A stretch of 5,137 nucleotides of DNA from Deltaproteobacteria bacterium (GCA_030595135.1 JAUVDU010000160.1:1-5137), one strand, 5' to 3'. Shown: positions 1 through 5,137, counted from the stretch's first letter. Notes: generated from the sequence alone by a model not told the origin. Numbers and translations are program-made.

Positions 1-348
1 CGTTATCATTGCGGTCTGGCTTCAGCTCCATTGCACATTAAAGAAACTCTGGTACGTTCTCGGGCGGCCGCCTCAAGAGCTGCAACCGTACTGGCGCGAA
101 AACAGATTTCGGCCGATAAGAGTACGGTTATGGTCAGTACCCGGCTCTGTAGTGGTTGCGGGCTCTGCGTTGACACCTGTCCCTATGGAGCTAGAGAGAT
201 TAATCTCTCTTCAATGATCGCCGAAATCCATTATGAACTCTGTCACGGCTGCGGTAGTTGCGCTGCGGTATGTCCCAACGGCGCCACCCAGCAGATCGGC
301 TTTGATAAAGGCCAGATGATGGCTGTGGCTAATGCTTTAATGCGCTGA
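1..348 (+). CDS. hdrA: HdrA-like subunit, C-terminal fragment (5' end outside window)
   Basis: The reading frame is open from base 1 to a TGA at 346-348, leaving 115 visible residues. The start lies beyond the left edge; the TTG at 31 is internal, because the residues before it continue the family pattern. The fragment begins with the end of the FAD-domain region (CGLASAP, then an Ala-rich helix RAAASRAATVLAR), typical of heterodisulfide reductase subunit A. Two ferredoxin-type [4Fe-4S] motifs follow, CSGCGLCVDTCP (Cys codons at 148, 157, 166, 178) and CHGCGSCAAVCP (Cys codons at 241, 250, 259, 271), then a short tail. In known complexes HdrA is the cytoplasmic FAD hub that splits or merges electron pairs between MvhD and HdrC. 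The mvhD gene follows after 45 bp, the usual partnership. QmoA/QmoB are related, but MvhD is a separate gene here, unlike QmoB. The FAD-binding part cannot be judged. Confidence 0.9.
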   Translation, partial: RYHCGLASAPLHIKETLVRSRAAASRAATVLARKQISADKSTVMVSTRLCSGCGLCVDTCPYGAREINLSSMIAEIHYELCHGCGSCAAVCPNGATQQIGFDKGQMMAVANALMR

Positions 349-379
349 TTTTTTACGAAAAAGTTAAATATTTTTGAAT

Positions 380-383
380 AGGA
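380..383 (+). promoter_or_regulatory. Ribosome-binding site of mvhD
   Basis: AGGA lies 10 bases before the ATG at 394, in an AT-rich 45-bp gap. It supports this start. No promoter or terminator is evident in the gap, so mvhD is probably co-transcribed with hdrA. Confidence 0.55.
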
Positions 384-393
384 AATAAGTAAT

Positions 394-822
394 ATGTCTG
401 ATTCTAAGTTTGAACCAAGGATTGTCGGTTTTTTGTGCCACTGGTGCACGTATACCGGAGCCGATTTGGCGGGAACCACCCGGCAGCAGTATCCGGCGGG
501 TATTCGGATTATCCATCTTATGTGTTCCGGGGCCATCGATGTTGTCTATGTCCTTAAATCCCTGCTCGACGGGGCCGATGGTGTGCTTATCGGCGGCTGT
601 CATCCCGGCGATTGCCATTATCAGACCGGGAATCTCAAAGCTCGTCGACGGATAGCTCTTTTACGCTCAGTCATGGAGACCTTAGGTCTTGATCAGGAAC
701 GAGTCTGGCTGCGTTGGATCAGCGCCAGTGAAGGACGCCTTTTTGCTCAGACTATCCGCGAATATGACGGAGCTCTGCAATCCCAGGGTAAAAACCCCCT
801 AGCTGATGAATGGGATCTTTAA
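394..822 (+). CDS. mvhD: MvhD/FlpD-family [2Fe-2S] electron-transfer subunit
   Basis: This 142-residue protein matches the compact single-domain MvhD family along its whole length. Hallmarks are CHWCTYTGADLAG near the N-terminus (Cys15, Cys18), MCSGAID (Cys44), GGCHPGDCHY (Cys69, Cys74) and the WISASEG segment at 108-114. These cysteines are expected to hold a [2Fe-2S] cluster. There is no signal peptide or membrane segment, so it is cytoplasmic. In methanogens MvhD passes electrons between a hydrogenase or formate dehydrogenase and HdrA; bacterial homologues sit beside HdrA in methylenetetrahydrofolate reductase, benzoyl-CoA reductase and Flox-type complexes. Here it lies between hdrA and an FrhB/FdhB-like gene, implying a wire from an oxidoreductase to HdrA. 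The ATG is supported by AGGA 10 bases upstream. No hydrogenase or formate dehydrogenase catalytic gene is visible, so its donor or acceptor is unknown. Confidence 0.93.
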   Translation: MSDSKFEPRIVGFLCHWCTYTGADLAGTTRQQYPAGIRIIHLMCSGAIDVVYVLKSLLDGADGVLIGGCHPGDCHYQTGNLKARRRIALLRSVMETLGLDQERVWLRWISASEGRLFAQTIREYDGALQSQGKNPLADEWDL

Positions 823-845
823 ATCAGATTCAAACTTTCGTAGCT

Positions 846-888
846 GGGGTCATTGCTTTAAAAGGGCTTTGCGAAAAGCTTTGACCCC
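846..888. repeat. Intergenic hairpin between mvhD and the FrhB-like gene
   Basis: GGGGTCA (846-852) pairs with TGACCCC (882-888), and GCTTT (855-859) pairs with AAAGC (875-879). A symmetric TT/TT internal loop separates the two stems and the terminal loop is 15 bases. No T-tract follows, so it does not look like an ordinary intrinsic terminator. It could be an mRNA processing or stabilising hairpin, an operator, or a copy of a dispersed repeat; the sequence does not decide. The rest of the 823-959 gap shows only the ribosome-binding site. Confidence 0.6.
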
Positions 889-945
889 GTTTGAGAGGGC
901 GAAGCAAAACAACAAACAATCGACTGTAACTTAACGAGTACGTTT

Positions 946-949
946 GGAG
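946..949 (+). promoter_or_regulatory. Ribosome-binding site of the FrhB/FdhB-like gene
   Basis: GGAG (within TTGGAGA) lies 10 bases before the ATG at 960 and supports that start. It is the only good Shine-Dalgarno match near the beginning of this reading frame. Confidence 0.6.
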
Positions 950-959
950 AATTATAACG

Positions 960-2111
960 ATGAAAACGACAGTAATCGATCTGTCTTCCGATTCCTTTAA
1001 TGGCGAGATCGAAGCCTTTTTGACCCGGCTGCTTGAGAGTGACTTGGTGGGCAGCCTTCTGGTGCCGAAGCAAACCACTGGCGGCGATAATTATGTCCAT
1101 GCCTTGATTAAAAATCCGGCCTTGTTGGCGGATACCGATATTGGGGCTCCGGTGATGCCGGTTCAGGCGGCTCGGATTATTTCGAACCTGACTTTTCGTG
1201 ATCCCGGTGAAAAAATCGGCGTCGTGGTTCGTCCCTGTGAAGCCCGGGCTCTGGTCGAACTTGCTAAATTTAAACAGATTACCCGCGATTCTCTGCTGAT
1301 TATCGCAGTTGACTGTCTCGGTACTTACGAGCCGAAAGATTTTTCCGCTCTTTGTAAAGCGGGTAAAACTCCGGCTCTTGATCTTCGTAAACAGGCGGCA
1401 ACCGGAGCTTGTACGGCTGATGAAAATGCTCCTTTCCGCTCAGCTTGTGAGATTTGTGAGTATCCGGCCATAGATGCCGGTGTTGTTGATCTGGTCGTCG
1501 GACTCTGGGGTGTTGACACCGAAAAACAGCTCTACGTTGAAGCCGGAGATGAACTGGCTGATGCCTTAAGCGAAAAGAGTATCCTTGAATTCAATGGTCA
1601 GGAGAACGCTAAACGGCAAGAGATTATTGATTCCGTTAAAGCTGATCGAACCAAGTCTTGCGAGCAGGTTTTAGGTGACTTTAGCAGCAAGGTAAACTCG
1701 ATCAAAGGAATCCAGGAGCTTCTTTCTACCTGTATGCGCTGTCACAACTGTATGATCAATTGTCCGATTTGTTACTGTCGCGAATGTGTCTTCCGCTCTC
1801 CGACCTTTGAACATACCCCCGATCAGTATCTGGGCTGGGCCAAAGATAAAGGTGCCATCCGGATGCCGGCCAATACCGTAATGTTCCACCTGACCCGTTT
1901 AAATCATATGGTTATCTCTTGTATCGGTTGCGGGATGTGTGATACGGCTTGTCCCAATGATATTCCGGTGATGTCGCTGTTTCGCACGGTTGGCAGGAAT
2001 GCGCAGAAGATGATGGAATATGTACCCGGCCAGAGCTATGATGAGCCCGCTCCGGCGACCACGTTCCAGGATACTGAACTGGTAACTGAAGCCGGTATGA
2101 GTGGCCATTAA
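960..2111 (+). CDS. FrhB/FdhB-type iron-sulfur flavoprotein (coenzyme F420 hydrogenase/dehydrogenase beta-subunit family)
   Basis: This 383-residue protein resembles the beta subunits of F420-reducing hydrogenase and F420-linked formate dehydrogenase. Residues 86-105 (GVVVRPCEARALVELAKFKQ) fit the family's conserved core. CEICEYPAIDAGVVDLVVG at 163-181 fits its Cys-x2-Cys plus Asp/Gly segment. The C-terminal third has a Cys-rich cluster with Cys258, 261, 264, 268, 271, 273 and 276, then CIGCGMCDTACP (Cys321, 324, 327, 331), so about two or three [4Fe-4S] clusters are expected. No signal peptide or membrane segment is seen. Members carry electrons between a flavin or F420 and Fe-S chains. Desulfobacterota generally do not depend on F420, so FAD with ferredoxin or NAD(P)H as partner is a reasonable guess, but it is inference. 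No matching catalytic alpha subunit is in the window. It probably works with the HdrA-MvhD pair upstream. Confidence 0.85.
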   Translation: MKTTVIDLSSDSFNGEIEAFLTRLLESDLVGSLLVPKQTTGGDNYVHALIKNPALLADTDIGAPVMPVQAARIISNLTFRDPGEKIGVVVRPCEARALVELAKFKQITRDSLLIIAVDCLGTYEPKDFSALCKAGKTPALDLRKQAATGACTADENAPFRSACEICEYPAIDAGVVDLVVGLWGVDTEKQLYVEAGDELADALSEKSILEFNGQENAKRQEIIDSVKADRTKSCEQVLGDFSSKVNSIKGIQELLSTCMRCHNCMINCPICYCRECVFRSPTFEHTPDQYLGWAKDKGAIRMPANTVMFHLTRLNHMVISCIGCGMCDTACPNDIPVMSLFRTVGRNAQKMMEYVPGQSYDEPAPATTFQDTELVTEAGMSGH

Positions 2112-2131
2112 TAATTTTATAGAACTTGACT

Positions 2132-2252
2132 GAAAACCTGACAATTTTCTTGAGTGCAAGGCAGGCAAAAATTTTAACCGCAGGCATACATCAAGTATTC
2201 CGAGGATTAAAATTTTCGCCTAACGCCGCAATCGAGGAAATTGGCGGTTTTC
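2132..2252. repeat. ~121-bp imperfect palindromic intergenic element (element A)
   Basis: Nearly the whole gap between the FrhB-like gene and the next gene is one long inverted repeat. Paired segments from outside in: GAAAACC (2132-2138) with GGTTTTC (2246-2252); CAATTT (2142-2147) with AAATTG (2238-2243); AGGC before and GCCT after the AT core; AAAATTTTAA (2168-2177) with TTAAAATTTT (2207-2216); ATAC (2186-2189) with GTAT (2195-2198). The apical loop is 5 bases. It has no coding potential. The shape is that of a dispersed REP/MITE-like repeat or a large RNA hairpin. I have an unverified impression that similar palindromes recur in Desulfobacterota intergenic regions. It ends 26 bases before the next gene's ribosome-binding site. 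Confidence 0.8.
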
Positions 2253-2277
2253 GTTCGTTTAGAAACGTTTTTTTCGC

Positions 2278-2283
2278 AGGAGG
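2278..2283 (+). promoter_or_regulatory. Strong ribosome-binding site of the Fe-S subunit gene
   Basis: A full AGGAGG lies 9 bases before the ATG at 2293, the best Shine-Dalgarno match in the window. It fixes this start and suggests strong translation of the fumarate reductase module. Confidence 0.8.
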
Positions 2284-2292
2284 AAGCTTACA

Positions 2293-3069
2293 ATGAGTGA
2301 GGCAAAAAAAGAGATCAGGGTAGCAACCGGCGACCGGGCTATTCTGCCTGAAGGCACAAAACTGGTGCCGATCTATATCATGGGAAAACAGTACCAGGTT
2401 CCGGAGACCATGACCATCCAGAAAGCGGTCGAATATGCCGGTTACCAGTTTATTCGGTCATGTGGTTGTCGCGGCGGTATTTGCGGAGCCTGCCCGACGA
2501 TTTATCGAGTTGCCGGTGATTATCACCTGCATTTCTGTCTTGCCTGCCAGACTGTCGTGCAAGAGGATATGTACCTGACTCAGATGCCGTTTTTCCCGGC
2601 TAACCGGGCGGCGTATGAGATTGAAGAGGTAGATGCTTCAGCTGAAACCATTATGAAACTCTACCCTGAAGTTATGAAATGTGTTGCCTGTAATACCTGC
2701 ACCAAATCCTGTCCGATGGACATTGAGGTTATGGAGTATGTTAATGCGGCGATGCGCGGTGATATTGCCAAGGCGGCCCGCCTCTCGTTTGATTGTATTC
2801 AGTGCGGTCTCTGTTCTTCGCGTTGTCCGGCCCAGATTCAACATTTTCATCTGGCTCAGTTGTGTCGTCGCGTACATGCCAAATATCAGGTTCCCCAGGC
2901 TGAACATCTCAAACCGCGGGTTGCCGCCATCAAAGATGGTAAGTTCGTCGATGTCTTGAAAGAACTGGTCGGCAGTAATGAGGATACTTTGCGCGAACTT
3001 TATGTTGCCCGCGAAATGGAGCCTCAAGACAGTAGTGATTGGCAGCCGGAAGAGAAGCAGTTTCTTTAA
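2293..3069 (+). CDS. Fumarate reductase/succinate dehydrogenase-type iron-sulfur subunit (TfrB-like, without CCG domains)
   Basis: This 258-residue soluble protein would carry electrons to or from the flavoprotein encoded 46 bp downstream. The N-terminal half is a plant-type [2Fe-2S] domain with CGCRGGICGAC (Cys57, 59, 64, 67) and CLAC (Cys82, 85). The C-terminal half has two complete [4Fe-4S] motifs, CVACNTCTKSCP (Cys130, 133, 136, 140) and CIQCGLCSSRCP (Cys168, 171, 174, 178). In quinone-linked SdhB/FrdB the third cluster is 3Fe-4S and one of these positions is not Cys, so a 3Fe-4S cluster is not expected. The closely spaced dicluster resembles HdrC, GlpC and thiol:fumarate reductase TfrB, but the CCG (HdrB-like) domains of TfrB are absent and the protein ends in a charged tail. 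No signal peptide or transmembrane helix is seen. The assignment to this superfamily is firm; the electron partner is inferred. Confidence 0.88.
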   Translation: MSEAKKEIRVATGDRAILPEGTKLVPIYIMGKQYQVPETMTIQKAVEYAGYQFIRSCGCRGGICGACPTIYRVAGDYHLHFCLACQTVVQEDMYLTQMPFFPANRAAYEIEEVDASAETIMKLYPEVMKCVACNTCTKSCPMDIEVMEYVNAAMRGDIAKAARLSFDCIQCGLCSSRCPAQIQHFHLAQLCRRVHAKYQVPQAEHLKPRVAAIKDGKFVDVLKELVGSNEDTLRELYVAREMEPQDSSDWQPEEKQFL

Positions 3070-3088
3070 AAGTTAATATTAAATAACA

Positions 3089-3128
3089 GTTATACACAAA
3101 TATAGAGGTTTAATCATGGGTTATACAC
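3089..3128 (+). repeat. Direct repeat GTTATACAC flanking the flavoprotein start
   Basis: GTTATACAC occurs at 3089-3097 and again at 3120-3128, 31 bp apart, on either side of the ribosome-binding site and ATG. The first copy continues as TTATACACA, an exact match to the DnaA-box consensus TTATNCACA; the second has one mismatch. The second copy is also coding, so chance is a real possibility in this AT-rich gap. Confidence 0.3.
3104..3108 (+). promoter_or_regulatory. Ribosome-binding site of the flavoprotein gene
   Basis: AGAGG lies 7 bases before the ATG at 3116, in a 46-bp AT-rich gap without a terminator. This supports the chosen start and co-transcription with the Fe-S subunit gene. Confidence 0.6.
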
Positions 3129-4795
3129 CTGAAATGCTGGATTTGATCAAAAAGGTCGAAGCCAGCCGTCCGGAGCGGCTCGAACGGAGCAAAAAAGGGA
3201 TCGATTTTGAACCTTTGACTCTGGCCGGTCGTGAAGAGGTGCTCAGCAAATTTCATCCCGATTACAAAGACGATGGTCGTCGTGATGTCAAAATCGGTCC
3301 GAGCAAAGGCGAAAGCTATCCTGATGAATTTGTTGATGTACTGGAGTCAAAAGCCCGTCTTCTGGTCTCAGGAGCCGAACTTGATAAACTGACGGAATAT
3401 GAAACTGAAGTTTTGGTTATCGGCGGCGGCGGCGCTGGAACGGCGGCGGCTTTGATGGCTCAGGAAAATGGTTGTAAGGTTATTATGGCAACTAAATTGC
3501 GCCATGGTGATGCCAATACGGTAATGGCGGAAGGCGGCATCCAGGGGGCGAGTCAGGAGGTTGATTCACCTTATTATCACTATCTTGATGTTATCGGTGG
3601 CGGTCATTTTACCAATACCCCGGAATTGGTTGCAGCGTTGACTAATGATGCACCTCTGGTTATCGAATGGCTCGAACGTTTGGGTCTGATGTTTGATAAA
3701 GATCCTGATGGTCGCCTGCGGGTACGGCATGGCGGTGGTACCAGTCGCAAACGGATGCACTCCTCCGGCGATATGACCGGTTCGGCGATTATGCGGGTTT
3801 TGCGCGATGAGTCGCGTAACCGTTCTGCCGATATTAACGTTTTAGAGTTCTCTTCGGCTGTCGAGATCCTTAAAGATAGTCAGGGTCGGGCTGCCGGGGC
3901 TCTCTTCTATAATATGGAGACTGAAGAATATTTTGTTGTCAAAGCTAAAGCTACGGTAATGGCAACCGGTGGTTATGGCCGCCTCCATATTCAGGGTTTT
4001 GCTACAACAAACCATTATGGGGCGACGGCAGATGGGCTGGTGATGGGCTATCGGGCCGGGGTGCCCATGGCGTTTATGCACTCAACTCAGTATCATCCGA
4101 CCGGTGTCGCTTTTCCGGAACAGAATATCGGTTTGCTGATTACTGAAAAAGTGCGTGGCTTAGGCGCTAACCTGCTCAATACCGATGCTGAACAGTTTGT
4201 TTTTGAACGTGAACCCCGTGATGTTGAATCAGCCTGTATTATTCGCGAATGTATGGAGCGGGGCAAGGGGATCATTACGGCTACCGGCCGGGTTGGCGTC
4301 TGGCTTGATTCGCCGATGATTGAGATCCTGGAAGGCCCGGGTGCGGTCAAACGTGAACTTCCGGCCAAACATATTCAGTTCATGCGTTATGGGATTGATA
4401 TCAGCAAAGTGCCGATGTTGGTCTATCCGACCCTGCATTATCAAAATGGCGGCCTGACGATTACTGATGACAGCGCCACTAACGTGCCCGGTCTCTTTGC
4501 CGCCGGTGAAACCACTGGCGGAGTCCACGGAGAGAACCGTTTGATGGGTAACTCGCTGCTCGATATTACGGTTTTCGGCCGCCGCGCCGGAACTAATGCA
4601 GCAGCCTATGCCAAGAACTTTGACGGTGAAGTTGGCAACGTCAATATGGATCATGTTGATGCTTACCATAAAGAGCTGACTGAGGCCGGAGTAGATACCG
4701 ACCGAGTCGCGCCATTGGTATTACCCAATTATACCCGTGAAGAGATTATGGAAAAACAGTTGACAACTAATTATCAAGGCGGCTTAAGAGCCTAA
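3116..4795 (+). CDS. Fumarate reductase/succinate dehydrogenase-type flavoprotein subunit (soluble, TfrA-like)
   Basis: This 559-residue FAD protein should interconvert fumarate and succinate. A Rossmann motif GGGGAG sits at 103-108 after an unusual charged ~95-residue N-terminal extension. Residues matching the FrdA/SdhA active site are present: HPTG at 327-330, Arg347 in EKVRGLG (the proton-shuttle arginine position), His441 in YPTLHYQNGG and Arg475 in NRLMGNSL. At the usual covalent-FAD position (HTVAAEGG in E. coli FrdA) this protein has NTVMAEGG with Asn134, so FAD is probably bound non-covalently, as in NadB-like relatives. Only about 84 residues follow Arg475, so the C-terminal helical domain of classical SdhA is short or missing. 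There is no Tat or Sec signal, so it is cytoplasmic, unlike the periplasmic Mfr-type enzymes. It pairs with the Fe-S gene upstream; no membrane-anchor gene follows. L-aspartate oxidase is less likely given that Fe-S partner and the HGxNRL-type motif. Confidence 0.9.
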   Translation: MGYTPEMLDLIKKVEASRPERLERSKKGIDFEPLTLAGREEVLSKFHPDYKDDGRRDVKIGPSKGESYPDEFVDVLESKARLLVSGAELDKLTEYETEVLVIGGGGAGTAAALMAQENGCKVIMATKLRHGDANTVMAEGGIQGASQEVDSPYYHYLDVIGGGHFTNTPELVAALTNDAPLVIEWLERLGLMFDKDPDGRLRVRHGGGTSRKRMHSSGDMTGSAIMRVLRDESRNRSADINVLEFSSAVEILKDSQGRAAGALFYNMETEEYFVVKAKATVMATGGYGRLHIQGFATTNHYGATADGLVMGYRAGVPMAFMHSTQYHPTGVAFPEQNIGLLITEKVRGLGANLLNTDAEQFVFEREPRDVESACIIRECMERGKGIITATGRVGVWLDSPMIEILEGPGAVKRELPAKHIQFMRYGIDISKVPMLVYPTLHYQNGGLTITDDSATNVPGLFAAGETTGGVHGENRLMGNSLLDITVFGRRAGTNAAAYAKNFDGEVGNVNMDHVDAYHKELTEAGVDTDRVAPLVLPNYTREEIMEKQLTTNYQGGLRA

Positions 4796-4834
4796 TTGTT
4801 TGTCGACAGTTTAAACTTCAAGAATAACCATCTG

Positions 4835-4957
4835 AATGGCAAAGTAAAAAGTTCATATGCGAGGCGCGGGAAAGCTTTGGAATGAGGCGTACATACAGTA
4901 CGCCGTAGTGACGAAGGGTGAGCGGAACGAAGCAGATGGACTTTTTAAGAAGCCATT
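4835..4957. repeat. ~123-bp imperfect palindromic intergenic element (element B)
   Basis: Paired segments from outside in: AATGGC (4835-4840) with GCCATT (4952-4957); AAAAAGTTCATATGC (4846-4860) with GCAGATGGACTTTTT (4932-4946), matching at 13 of 15; and a perfect apical stem GGCGTAC (4886-4892) with GTACGCC (4898-4904) around a 5-base loop. The regions between the arms and the apex pair poorly. It has no coding potential. The right end touches the sucC ribosome-binding site. Terminal inverted repeats plus a central hairpin suit a MITE- or REP-like dispersed repeat. I have an unverified impression of similar sequences in Desulfobacterota. The rest of the 4796-4967 gap holds only TGTCGACA (4801-4808) and a small CCAT-CTGA-ATGG hairpin at 4828-4839. 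Confidence 0.8.
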
Positions 4958-4962
4958 AGGAG
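4958..4962 (+). promoter_or_regulatory. Ribosome-binding site of sucC, abutting palindrome B
   Basis: AGGAG lies 5 bases before the ATG at 4968 and begins on the base after the right end of palindrome B. Folding of that palindrome in the transcript could affect ribosome access. Confidence 0.75.
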
Positions 4963-4967
4963 AAAAA

Positions 4968-5137
4968 ATGAAAATACATGAATATCAGGCTAAAGCCCTG
5001 CTTAAGGAATCCGGTGTTCAGGTGCCTCGCGGAGTTCCGATCTTTGACCTTGATCAGGTTGAAGGGGTAGTTAGTGAGTTGGGCGGGGGCACGGTTGTGG
5101 TCAAGGCTCAGATTCACGCTGGCGGTCGCGGAAAAGG
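4968..5137 (+). CDS. sucC: Succinyl-CoA synthetase (ADP-forming) beta subunit, N-terminal fragment (3' end outside window)
   Basis: The first 56 codons are visible before the right edge. The start [20 protein letters not shown] is the standard N-terminus of SucC, and [11 protein letters not shown] at 46-56 is the conserved ATP-grasp segment that contacts nucleotide. The full protein is usually near 390 residues and pairs with SucD, whose gene normally follows directly. The enzyme interconverts succinyl-CoA and succinate with ADP/ATP (or GDP/GTP) in the cytoplasm. Its place after the fumarate reductase pair puts succinate at the junction of the two enzymes and supports a role for the locus in TCA-type or methylmalonyl-CoA/propionate C4 metabolism. 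The ATG is fixed by AGGAG 5 bases upstream and by the family N-terminus. The 172-bp gap before it contains palindrome B, so it may be expressed differently from the genes upstream. Confidence 0.96.

What the first reader, a model, noticed from the sequence alone, without database searches (positions are those of the whole stretch)
1..5137. Candidate HdrA-linked (possibly electron-bifurcating) soluble fumarate reductase/succinate dehydrogenase locus
An HdrA-MvhD-FrhB-like set lies directly upstream, same strand, of a soluble fumarate reductase pair and sucC. HdrA complexes normally use HdrC (paired [4Fe-4S]) to reach HdrB; here no HdrB or HdrC is in view, and the fumarate reductase Fe-S subunit itself carries an HdrC-like dicluster. 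This would let HdrA feed the flavoprotein directly, with fumarate (a high-potential acceptor) in place of heterodisulfide. Such a complex could couple fumarate reduction to ferredoxin reduction, or in reverse drive succinate oxidation. Gene order and motifs are seen; HdrA-based bifurcation is established for other systems; the joint complex is inference. I cannot tell whether it has already been described.
Basis: partly seen in the sequence, partly recalled or inferred. Interest (0 to 1): 0.75.

Follow-up and report, generated by a model that had tools for sequence, protein, structure and literature searches.

The report
Hdr-wired soluble fumarate reductase operon
This contig is the downstream end of a gene cluster, kept in several bacterial phyla and in archaea, in which a fumarate reductase predicted to be soluble is encoded beside HdrABC-type flavin proteins that would likely split electrons between fumarate and ferredoxin; a sister version with a different electron-input module has already been proposed in print.

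Summary
In detail: HdrA C-terminus, MvhD, an FdhB/FrhB-like subunit, a [2Fe-2S]+2[4Fe-4S] FrdB, a fumarate-reductase flavoprotein and the sucC start lie on one strand. The key inference, 'no HdrB/HdrC, so FrdB replaces HdrC', is wrong: the contig simply ends. Two contigs of the same MAG join on by exact 141-bp end overlaps and carry hdrC-hdrB-hdrA'-hdrA and hdrC-hdrB-hdrA-long. Among 60 unique loci with at least 5 kb upstream, HdrB is near FrdB in 56, and HdrA never occurs without HdrB. FrdBA stays constant while the electron-input module varies: MvhD+FdhB-like with HdrA-long (32), MvhD+Flx (10), MvhD only (1), none recognised (17). Kor genes lie nearby in 22. Best model: donor electrons reach HdrA flavins through FdhB-like/MvhD; one branch goes to ferredoxin, the other through HdrC-HdrB-FrdB-FrdA to fumarate. 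Adjacency and motifs are shown; complex, donor, direction and bifurcation are inferred. The idea was published for Flx-Hdr-linked enzymes (Pseudoclostridium thermosuccinogenes; tubeworm symbionts). The FdhB-like/HdrA-long version with a second HdrBC pair was not found in my paper searches: a new variant of a proposed kind.

The parts
1..348 (+). HdrA-long, last 115 aa (C-terminal two-[4Fe-4S] ferredoxin domain, where MvhD is expected to dock); 5' end off the contig
   Evidence: 88% identical to residues 905-1019 of the 1019-aa HdrA-long of L013; the first 141 bp are identical to the end of contig C152 of the same MAG, which carries the rest
394..822 (+). MvhD/FlpD-type electron-transfer subunit, 142 aa (predicted [2Fe-2S])
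   Evidence: PF02662 160 bits; 80-98% identical in the nearest loci, L013-L022
960..2111 (+). FdhB/FrhB-like subunit, 383 aa: FrhB-type domain plus C-terminal Cys-rich dicluster; predicted electron-input port
   Evidence: phmmer to FdhB of methanogen complexes, 9t1s_M 3e-27 and 7bkb_E 6e-22; AF2 pLDDT 82.0, top Foldseek hits 7bkb_E and 8rvu_E; 11 Cys of the dicluster region invariant in 29 sequences
2293..3069 (+). FrdB-like Fe-S subunit, 258 aa: [2Fe-2S] plus two [4Fe-4S] motifs
   Evidence: Motifs in sequence; [2Fe-2S] motif in 72 and two CxxCxxCxxxC motifs in 71 of 73 unique loci, the misses being truncated frames
3116..4795 (+). FrdA-like flavoprotein, 559 aa: about 98-aa N-terminal extension, FAD/fumarate domain, no PF02910 match; Asn134 in place of the covalent-FAD His
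   Evidence: FAD_binding_2 237 bits, no PF02910 hit; catalytic H327, T343, E344, R368, H441, R475 conserved, Asn at the His column in 75 of 75 rows, duplicates included (His position read from the PDB alignments); AF2 pLDDT 75.5, top hit 1kf6_A, E. coli FrdA
4968..5137 (+). start of sucC (succinyl-CoA ligase beta); runs off the contig; sucD follows in relatives
   Evidence: PF08442 and SucC models; SucC-SucD after FrdA in L012, L015 and others

Best explanation
The window is the 3' part of a conserved cluster in which a fumarate reductase (FrdB-FrdA) is encoded with HdrABC-type proteins, and these are predicted to form one soluble flavin-based complex that splits electrons between fumarate and ferredoxin. 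Shown by sequence: in this organism the order, read across contigs, is FumA-FumB-HdrC1-HdrB1-HdrA'-HdrA-HdrC2-HdrB2-HdrA-long-MvhD-FdhB-like-FrdB-FrdA-SucC. The C195-C152-window joins are exact 141-bp end overlaps; the join to the contig with the whole fumarase rests on a 319-bp overlap at 94.7% identity and on the same order (FumA-FumB-HdrC-HdrB-HdrA type) in 8 of 9 relatives whose upstream region I fetched. Inferred route: hydride-level electrons, most likely ultimately from NAD(P)H, enter through the FdhB-like subunit and MvhD into the C-terminal ferredoxin domain of HdrA-long and reach an HdrA flavin. There one electron goes down to ferredoxin and the other goes up through HdrC1 and HdrB1 into the [4Fe-4S] clusters of FrdB and the FAD of FrdA, which reduces fumarate. 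HdrB1 rather than HdrB2 is my choice for the contact with FrdB, because the HdrB1 clade also holds the HdrBs of the minimal HdrC-HdrB-FrdB-FrdA clusters and of the Flx and Kor types, whereas the HdrB2 clade is found only in loci with HdrA-long. Net reaction, untested: 2 NAD(P)H + fumarate + 2 Fd(ox) -> 2 NAD(P)+ + succinate + 2 Fd(red), about -49 kJ/mol at standard potentials. That would be exactly the reduced ferredoxin that 2-oxoglutarate:ferredoxin oxidoreductase, encoded nearby in 22 of 60 loci, would need for the next step.
For: Own-genome linkage: exact overlaps; fumarase. Conservation: 73 unique loci, 60 with at least 5 kb upstream: HdrB 56, HdrC 54, HdrA 50, all three 48, HdrA without HdrB 0. 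Bifurcation-relevant anatomy: HdrA of L013 (667 aa) aligns end to end with M. thermolithotrophicus HdrA 5odc_A (E 1e-163), including the CVGSRD...CSxxCCMY motif and the C-terminal ferredoxin domain; the N-terminal half of HdrA-long keeps the same motif. HdrB: 57 of 64 frames have two full CCG motifs, the other 7 being fragments; both HdrBs of the own genome have two. FdhB-like fold matches FdhB of a methanogen FdhAB-HdrABC complex. FrdB ligands in 71-72 of 73; FrdA active site conserved. HdrB1 as the Frd partner: two deep HdrB clades split by a branch of 97% SH-aLRT; of 17 HdrB copies directly before FrdB, 12 are on the HdrB1 side; in 8 of 8 FdhB-type genomes probed the best HdrB1 match lies on the contig of the Frd locus (contigs compared). 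Input module swaps while FrdBA stays: the FdhB label needs 7 changes on the FrdA tree, at least 4 forced by supported branches. NAD(P)H as donor: Flx genes of L121 and L133 include an NAD-binding FlxA-like protein, and 10 loci are of this type; 3 of 32 FdhB-type loci carry a GltD-type NAD(P)H module (L029, L032, L035); NuoEF-like genes sit upstream of fumarase in G000 and G005; CofD for F420 is found in only 2 of 21 relatives. Energetics: potentials from passages, sum.
Against: No complex, activity or expression was measured; only two monomers were modelled. 10 of 60 assessable loci have no HdrA in reach: 6 have HdrBC only, and 4 have no Hdr gene at all (L037, L052, L114, L132). So FrdBA can apparently work without HdrA there, or HdrA is encoded elsewhere. 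17 of 60 have no donor module that my profiles recognise. The FdhB-like subunit resembles F420-linked proteins while F420 synthesis seems absent, so its donor is not identified. The cluster has two HdrBC pairs, and which one contacts FrdB is inferred from a quick tree only: in 5 loci (L032, L035, L042, L027, L033) it is the HdrB2-clade gene that lies immediately upstream of FrdB, which argues against my choice of HdrB1. NuoEFG-like genes are near in only 1 of 9 relatives fetched. Gaps of 137-181 bp separate some window genes; no terminator-like site lies in them, but one weak promoter-like match (9 of 12) lies at 891-920, before the FdhB-like gene, with fewer such matches in the window (4) than in shuffles (mean 6.0).
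Confidence: 0.5

Rival explanations
1. The same complex runs mainly in reverse (confurcation): reduced ferredoxin and succinate together reduce NAD(P)+, letting a syntroph or fermenter oxidise succinate, for example in propionate or 2-oxoglutarate oxidation.
For: SucCD and fumarase are in the cluster; methylmalonyl-CoA mutase in 20 of 21 relatives; acetyl-CoA synthase CdhC in 12 of 21, not in the incomplete own genome; nearby Kor genes in 22 of 60 loci would supply ferredoxin 1:1; dsrA over the cut-off in 1 of 21, with weaker matches in 5 more, so most do not look like sulfate reducers.
Against: 75 of 75 FrdA rows have Asn where SdhA/FrdA carry the covalent-FAD His; from recalled work on E. 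coli FrdA, losing the covalent link spares fumarate reduction and cripples succinate oxidation. The standard free energy would be +49 kJ/mol (reversed), so it needs very low NADH and fumarate.
Confidence: 0.22
2. Thiol-linked or separate enzymes: HdrB reduces or oxidises its own disulfide/thiol and FrdBA is fed by thiols or by another carrier, as in methanogen thiol:fumarate reductase; the genes are only co-regulated.
For: HdrB keeps both CCG motifs of a disulfide site; HdrC-HdrB-FrdB-FrdA without HdrA in 6 of 60 loci; the HdrB of L115 matches the C-terminal part of the TfrB model (58 bits).
Against: HdrA is present in 50 of 60 loci; no known bacterial CoM/CoB substrate (recalled); dsrA is over its cut-off in 1 of 21 relatives, so DsrC trisulfide is an unlikely substrate; FrdA and FrdB score far below the Tfr cut-offs.
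Confidence: 0.15
3. One reading: HdrA hands electrons straight to FrdB, whose dicluster stands in for HdrC.
For: FrdB does carry two [4Fe-4S] motifs and weakly matches HdrC (TIGR03290, 23 bits against a cut-off of 160).
Against: HdrBC is present in the own genome and HdrA never occurs without HdrB in 60 assessable loci; two 4Fe-4S clusters in SdhB-like subunits are also known from other soluble or E-type enzymes (recalled).
Confidence: 0.05
4. A membrane succinate dehydrogenase of E type (MFR/SdhABE): HdrB is really an SdhE-type anchor to quinone and the Hdr genes are unrelated neighbours.
For: HdrB of L013 and L121 score slightly higher against MFR SdhE (141 and 170 bits) than against HdrB (122 and 149 bits); 6 of 57 HdrB frames, 2 of 55 HdrC frames and the HdrA-long of L013 exceed 1.6 in a 19-residue hydropathy window.
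Against: All these scores are far below the SdhE cut-off of 500; HdrA and HdrC are conserved with it; no PF01127 anchor in 21 genomes; 0 of 70 FrdB frames exceed 1.6; the HdrB of L115 scores higher as HdrB (152) than as SdhE (142).
Confidence: 0.08

Closest known systems
Flx-Hdr-linked fumarate reductase of Pseudoclostridium thermosuccinogenes ('succinate operon'; PMC7282089; preprint of Koendjbiharie and van Kranenburg 2019, cited there, not held)
   Same: Fumarase, Hdr bifurcation set and fumarate reductase in one operon; proposed fumarate reduction linked to ferredoxin reduction (passages). My L121-type loci have the same overall order.
   Different: NADH input by FlxABCD; in the window's type MvhD plus an FdhB-like subunit, HdrA-long and a second HdrBC pair take that place. 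I did not align the P. thermosuccinogenes proteins.
korABCD and tfrAB interspersed with flxABCD-hdrABC in tubeworm symbionts and Thioflavicoccus mobilis (PMC6315080)
   Same: The paper suggests a complex shuttling electrons to 2-oxoglutarate:ferredoxin oxidoreductase and a Tfr-like fumarate reductase (passages); a Kor-Hdr-Frd neighbourhood also occurs here (Kor near FrdB in 22 of 60 loci).
   Different: Flx input, Gammaproteobacteria; FdhB-like/HdrA-long not mentioned in the passages read.
FdhAB-HdrABC(-MvhD) complexes of methanogens (PDB 7bkb, 8rvu, 9t1s)
   Same: FdhB fold and HdrA homology.
   Different: No FdhA catalytic gene recognised; the acceptor is predicted to be FrdBA, not the CoM/CoB heterodisulfide; HdrA-long is a fused double module.
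Thiol:fumarate reductase TfrAB
   Same: Soluble FrdA/FrdB-type pair; TfrA is the best-scoring NCBIfam model for FrdA (329 bits).
   Different: Below both Tfr cut-offs; HdrB is a separate protein rather than fused to FrdB.
MetFV-HdrABC-MvhD of Moorella thermoacetica (passages in PMC5861303)
   Same: HdrABC-MvhD module coupled to a non-disulfide acceptor enzyme.
   Different: Acceptor is methylene-H4F reductase; no Frd. No fumarate reductase is named among the bifurcating enzymes in the passages I saw (12 of 29 places).
Soluble NADH-dependent FrdABCDE of Hydrogenobacter thermophilus (recalled)
   Same: Soluble multi-subunit fumarate reductase in a reductive TCA setting.
   Different: Not compared here; only a search listing was seen.

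Membership tests
HdrABC-based flavin bifurcation module | HdrA with FAD fold, CVGSRD...CCMY motif and ferredoxin domains; HdrC dicluster; HdrB with two CCG motifs | tested here: met
   HdrA alignments were read on the L013 orthologues; both HdrBs of the own genome (C152, C195) have two CCG motifs.
HdrABC-based flavin bifurcation module | ferredoxin-coupled turnover | not testable with these tools
   Needs purified enzyme.
FlxABCD-HdrABC (as in the published fumarate reductase proposals) | FlxA NAD-binding and FlxB Fer4_22 subunits beside MvhD | tested here: not met
   Not in the window's locus; FdhB-like instead. An MvhD+Flx set is found in 10 of 60 sister loci.
Thiol:fumarate reductase TfrAB | NCBIfam TfrA/TfrB scores over cut-off; HdrB fused to FrdB | tested here: not met
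   329 against 718 and 28 against 385 bits; HdrB separate.
Complex II (quinone SDH/QFR) | membrane anchor Sdh_cyt (PF01127) | tested here: not met
   0 of 21 genomes; control rings in 7 of 14. The own genome is only 70.5% complete; other anchor families were not searched.
Complex II (quinone SDH/QFR) | covalent-FAD His and C-terminal flavoprotein domain PF02910 | tested here: not met
   Asn in 75 of 75 rows; no PF02910 match in the window FrdA.
MFR / SdhABE | SdhE anchor over NCBIfam cut-off | tested here: not met
   141-170 bits against 500 for the three HdrBs scanned.
FrdA/SdhA fumarate-succinate catalytic site | His/Thr-Glu/Arg/His/Arg set | tested here: met
   75 of 75 at four positions; 74 and 73 of 75 at the last His and Arg, the rest gaps.
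L-aspartate oxidase NadB | NCBIfam nadB over cut-off | tested here: not met
   253 against 453 bits.
FdhB of FdhAB | FdhB fold | tested here: met
   (TM-score 0.64-0.68 to 7bkb_E).
FdhB of FdhAB | adjacent FdhA catalytic gene | not tested
   I ran no FdhA search. Twelve relatives, the own genome included, have one full-length FdhB-like copy each; G019 has two distant ones (33-35%).

The most novel reading that the evidence does not exclude
A very large soluble complex with up to four HdrA flavin modules and two different HdrBC exits uses fumarate as its high-potential acceptor, and it is a plug-in system: one constant HdrBC1-FrdBA core is wired in evolution to different electron inputs (FdhB-like/HdrA-long, Flx, or directly 2-oxoglutarate:ferredoxin oxidoreductase). 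It makes the fumarate-to-2-oxoglutarate arm of the reductive TCA cycle self-sufficient in reduced ferredoxin, one bifurcation per carboxylation, in bacteria and archaea.
Probability: 0.25. Interest if true: 0.75.

Novelty: new variant of a known kind. Interest (0 to 1): 0.5.

Why it matters
Fumarate/succinate is normally a quinone-linked energy step. If fumarate is a bifurcation acceptor, cells without a membrane fumarate reductase can still turn its energy into reduced ferredoxin, which would change ATP and redox budgets for uncultured anaerobes (Tharpella relatives, Bacillota, Chloroflexota, archaea) and explain how 2-oxoglutarate synthase could be fed. It also gives an annotation rule: one search found 2,545 FrdB relatives at E 1e-20; among the 120 listed most have no name, and the given names range from 'ferredoxin', 'heterodisulfide reductase subunit C' and 'formate hydrogenlyase subunit 6' to, in two cases, 'succinate dehydrogenase/fumarate reductase-like Fe-S protein'.

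Tried and rejected
Quinone-linked complex II: no PF01127 anchor, no covalent His. DsrC trisulfide as the HdrB partner: dsrA over the cut-off in 1 of 21 genomes (DsrC itself was not searched). F420 as donor: CofD in 2 of 21; the CofD Pfam model also rings in controls such as E. coli, so this is a generous test. RNA elements: none in Rfam. Promoter/terminator scan: 4 promoter-like matches (shuffles 6.0) and 7 terminator-like (shuffles 5.4); no terminator-like site between the window genes, one promoter-like match at 891-920. FrdB against PDB chains gave matches to ferredoxin-type domains of other proteins. The PF02910 search found a match in 19 of 21 relatives, many in about 550-aa frames that I take for NadB but did not check one by one. 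Of 82 loci with FrdB (the window included), 9 duplicates and then 13 with under 5 kb upstream were dropped before the 60-locus counts. The 37 phylum regions were picked from the 78 genomes with a hit among 297, by rank, spread and room on the contig, not all. 'No donor' means none by my profiles; 3 of those 17 (L113, L118, L126) carry a GltD-like gene near the Frd genes. One search returned 0 papers, but the term lacked the hyphen that PMC6315080 uses, so that zero means little.

Paper use: PMC5861303, PMC6315080, PMC7282089, PMC9213671, PMC11201294 and PMC10579422 were seen as passages by 'find' only; other papers as listings. I found no description of the FdhB-like/HdrA-long version in searches, by their listings; the library lacks most subscription journals and the key preprint.

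Full report
What the window is. It is a complete 5,137-bp contig (C145) of a 2.18-Mb, 415-contig, 70.5%-complete MAG. Its nearest named relatives are Candidatus Tharpella MAGs (FrdB 95-97% identical). Six + strand frames encode the C-terminus of HdrA, MvhD, an FdhB/FrhB-like protein, FrdB, FrdA and the start of SucC.

The missing neighbours. The window's first 141 bp are identical to the last 141 bp of contig C152, and C152's first 141 bp to the last 141 bp of C195, all in the same MAG, as contig ends of a k=141 assembly graph would be (my inference). C152 carries HdrC-HdrB-HdrA-long; C195 carries the end of fumarase (FumB)-HdrC-HdrB-HdrA'-HdrA. C214 overlaps the start of C195 by 319 bp at 94.7% and carries NuoE-NuoF-NuoG-like-FumA-FumB; this last join is less certain. 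The same order from HdrA' to FrdA lies on single contigs of relatives such as L013, L015 and L017. Fumarase lies upstream in 8 of 9 relatives whose further upstream region I fetched; the Nuo-like genes in only 1 of those 9. So HdrB and HdrC are not absent; there are two pairs.

Conservation. I collected 44 loci by FrdB homology from the genome-contig collection and 37 more regions from the 78 of 297 phylum genomes with FrdB, without selecting for Hdr genes. Of 82 loci in which my profile found FrdB (the window included), 9 duplicates were removed; of the 73 unique loci, 60 have at least 5 kb upstream of FrdB. With score thresholds: HdrB 56, HdrC 54, HdrA 50, all three 48; HdrA without HdrB 0; HdrB without HdrA 6; no Hdr at all 4. 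Input modules: MvhD+FdhB-like 32 (all 32 with HdrA-long, against 1 of the other 28), MvhD+Flx 10, MvhD only 1, none 17. Kor genes are near in 22, SucC in 28. Titles and NCBI ranks of the named loci include Thermodesulfobacteriota, Bacillota, Chloroflexota, Gemmatimonadota, Planctomycetota (HdrBC only), Myxococcota and archaea.

Two HdrB clades. A quick tree of 67 HdrB sequences splits deeply (97% SH-aLRT). One clade of 25 (HdrB2) holds 20 HdrA-long-adjacent copies plus five copies that sit directly before FrdB. The other side of 42 (HdrB1) holds the fumarase-adjacent copies, the Flx-type, the Kor-type, the Bacillota and the minimal HdrC-HdrB-FrdB-FrdA copies; of 17 copies directly before FrdB, 12 are here (two long-branch rows, L030_B3 and L133, are unsure). 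In 8 of 8 FdhB-type genomes probed, the best HdrB1 match lies on the contig of the Frd locus (for L029, one chromosome, 0.9 kb above the fetched locus); 6 of the 8 have a second HdrB match close by on that contig. I therefore propose HdrBC1-FrdBA as the constant core; the five HdrB2 copies beside FrdB count against this.

The enzyme. In 75 FrdA rows (duplicates included) the fumarate-site residues are conserved and the covalent-FAD His is always Asn. The protein has an N-terminal extension of about 98 residues and only 84 residues after the HGxNR motif, with no PF02910 match. AF2 (pLDDT 75.5) gives E. coli FrdA as the top fold match. FrdB has [2Fe-2S] and two [4Fe-4S] motifs. The FdhB-like protein (pLDDT 82.0) is closest to FdhB of a methanogen FdhAB-HdrABC complex.

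How it most likely works. Donor electrons would enter through FdhB-like and MvhD, be split at an HdrA flavin, and go to ferredoxin and, through HdrC-HdrB-FrdB, to the FAD of FrdA. HdrA of L013 aligns end to end with the structurally solved HdrA of a bifurcating complex. With NADH the sum is about -49 kJ/mol at standard potentials and about -18 kJ/mol with NADH at -280 and Fd at -500 mV. Donor: Flx in sister loci, GltD-like modules in 3 of 32 FdhB-type loci, and scarce F420 genes (2 of 21) point to NAD(P)H, but formate is not excluded. Direction: the missing covalent FAD link favours fumarate reduction (recalled E. coli work); methylmalonyl-CoA mutase in 20 of 21 relatives keeps propionate metabolism, in either direction, open.

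What is known. A Flx-Hdr-linked fumarate reductase was proposed for Pseudoclostridium thermosuccinogenes (PMC7282089 passages) and a Flx-Hdr-Kor-Tfr complex for tubeworm symbionts (PMC6315080 passages). The FdhB-like/HdrA-long version with a second HdrBC pair, its spread and the interchangeable inputs were not found in my searches of an incomplete library (listed in Tried and rejected). Limits: no activity data, no complex models, quick trees, related rows, and profile-based gene calls on stop-to-stop frames.

Noticed in passing
L113, L115, L118, L126, L128, L129: In 6 loci KorA-KorB (KorB fused to the POR gamma domain in L115) sit between HdrA and FrdB with no MvhD or FdhB-like gene recognised: 2-oxoglutarate:ferredoxin oxidoreductase itself may be the electron partner of HdrA.
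   Followed up: partly
L030 12483-15224; L038 12640-15235: Archaeal loci place KorABC directly after FrdA and then an HdrA-long-type gene, mirroring the bacterial neighbourhood.
   Followed up: partly
L048, L050, L052: WOR-3 loci carry FumA-FumB-FrdB-FrdA with no Hdr genes in the fetched stretch; L048 also has a metallo-beta-lactamase-fold gene upstream. How this FrdBA gets electrons is unknown.
   Followed up: no
L170 4083-4592, 2209-4083, 1541-2218 (minus strand; G000 contig C214): NuoE-, NuoF- and NuoG-like genes directly upstream of fumarase in the window's genome and in G005, but not found in the other relatives fetched; possibly an NADH module of the same complex.
   Followed up: partly
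L003 and L155 (G000 contig C239): A further dicluster-HdrC-HdrB set in the same genome, on a contig with no detected link to this locus.
   Followed up: no
L166 837 onward (G155 contig C95): A second FrdA-like frame (567 codons, 874 bits) about 7 kb upstream of FumA in the same genome region.
   Followed up: no
HdrA-long in 32 FdhB-type loci: HdrA-long occurs in 32 of 32 FdhB-like-type loci and in 1 of 28 others: the two seem to form one inherited module.
   Followed up: partly
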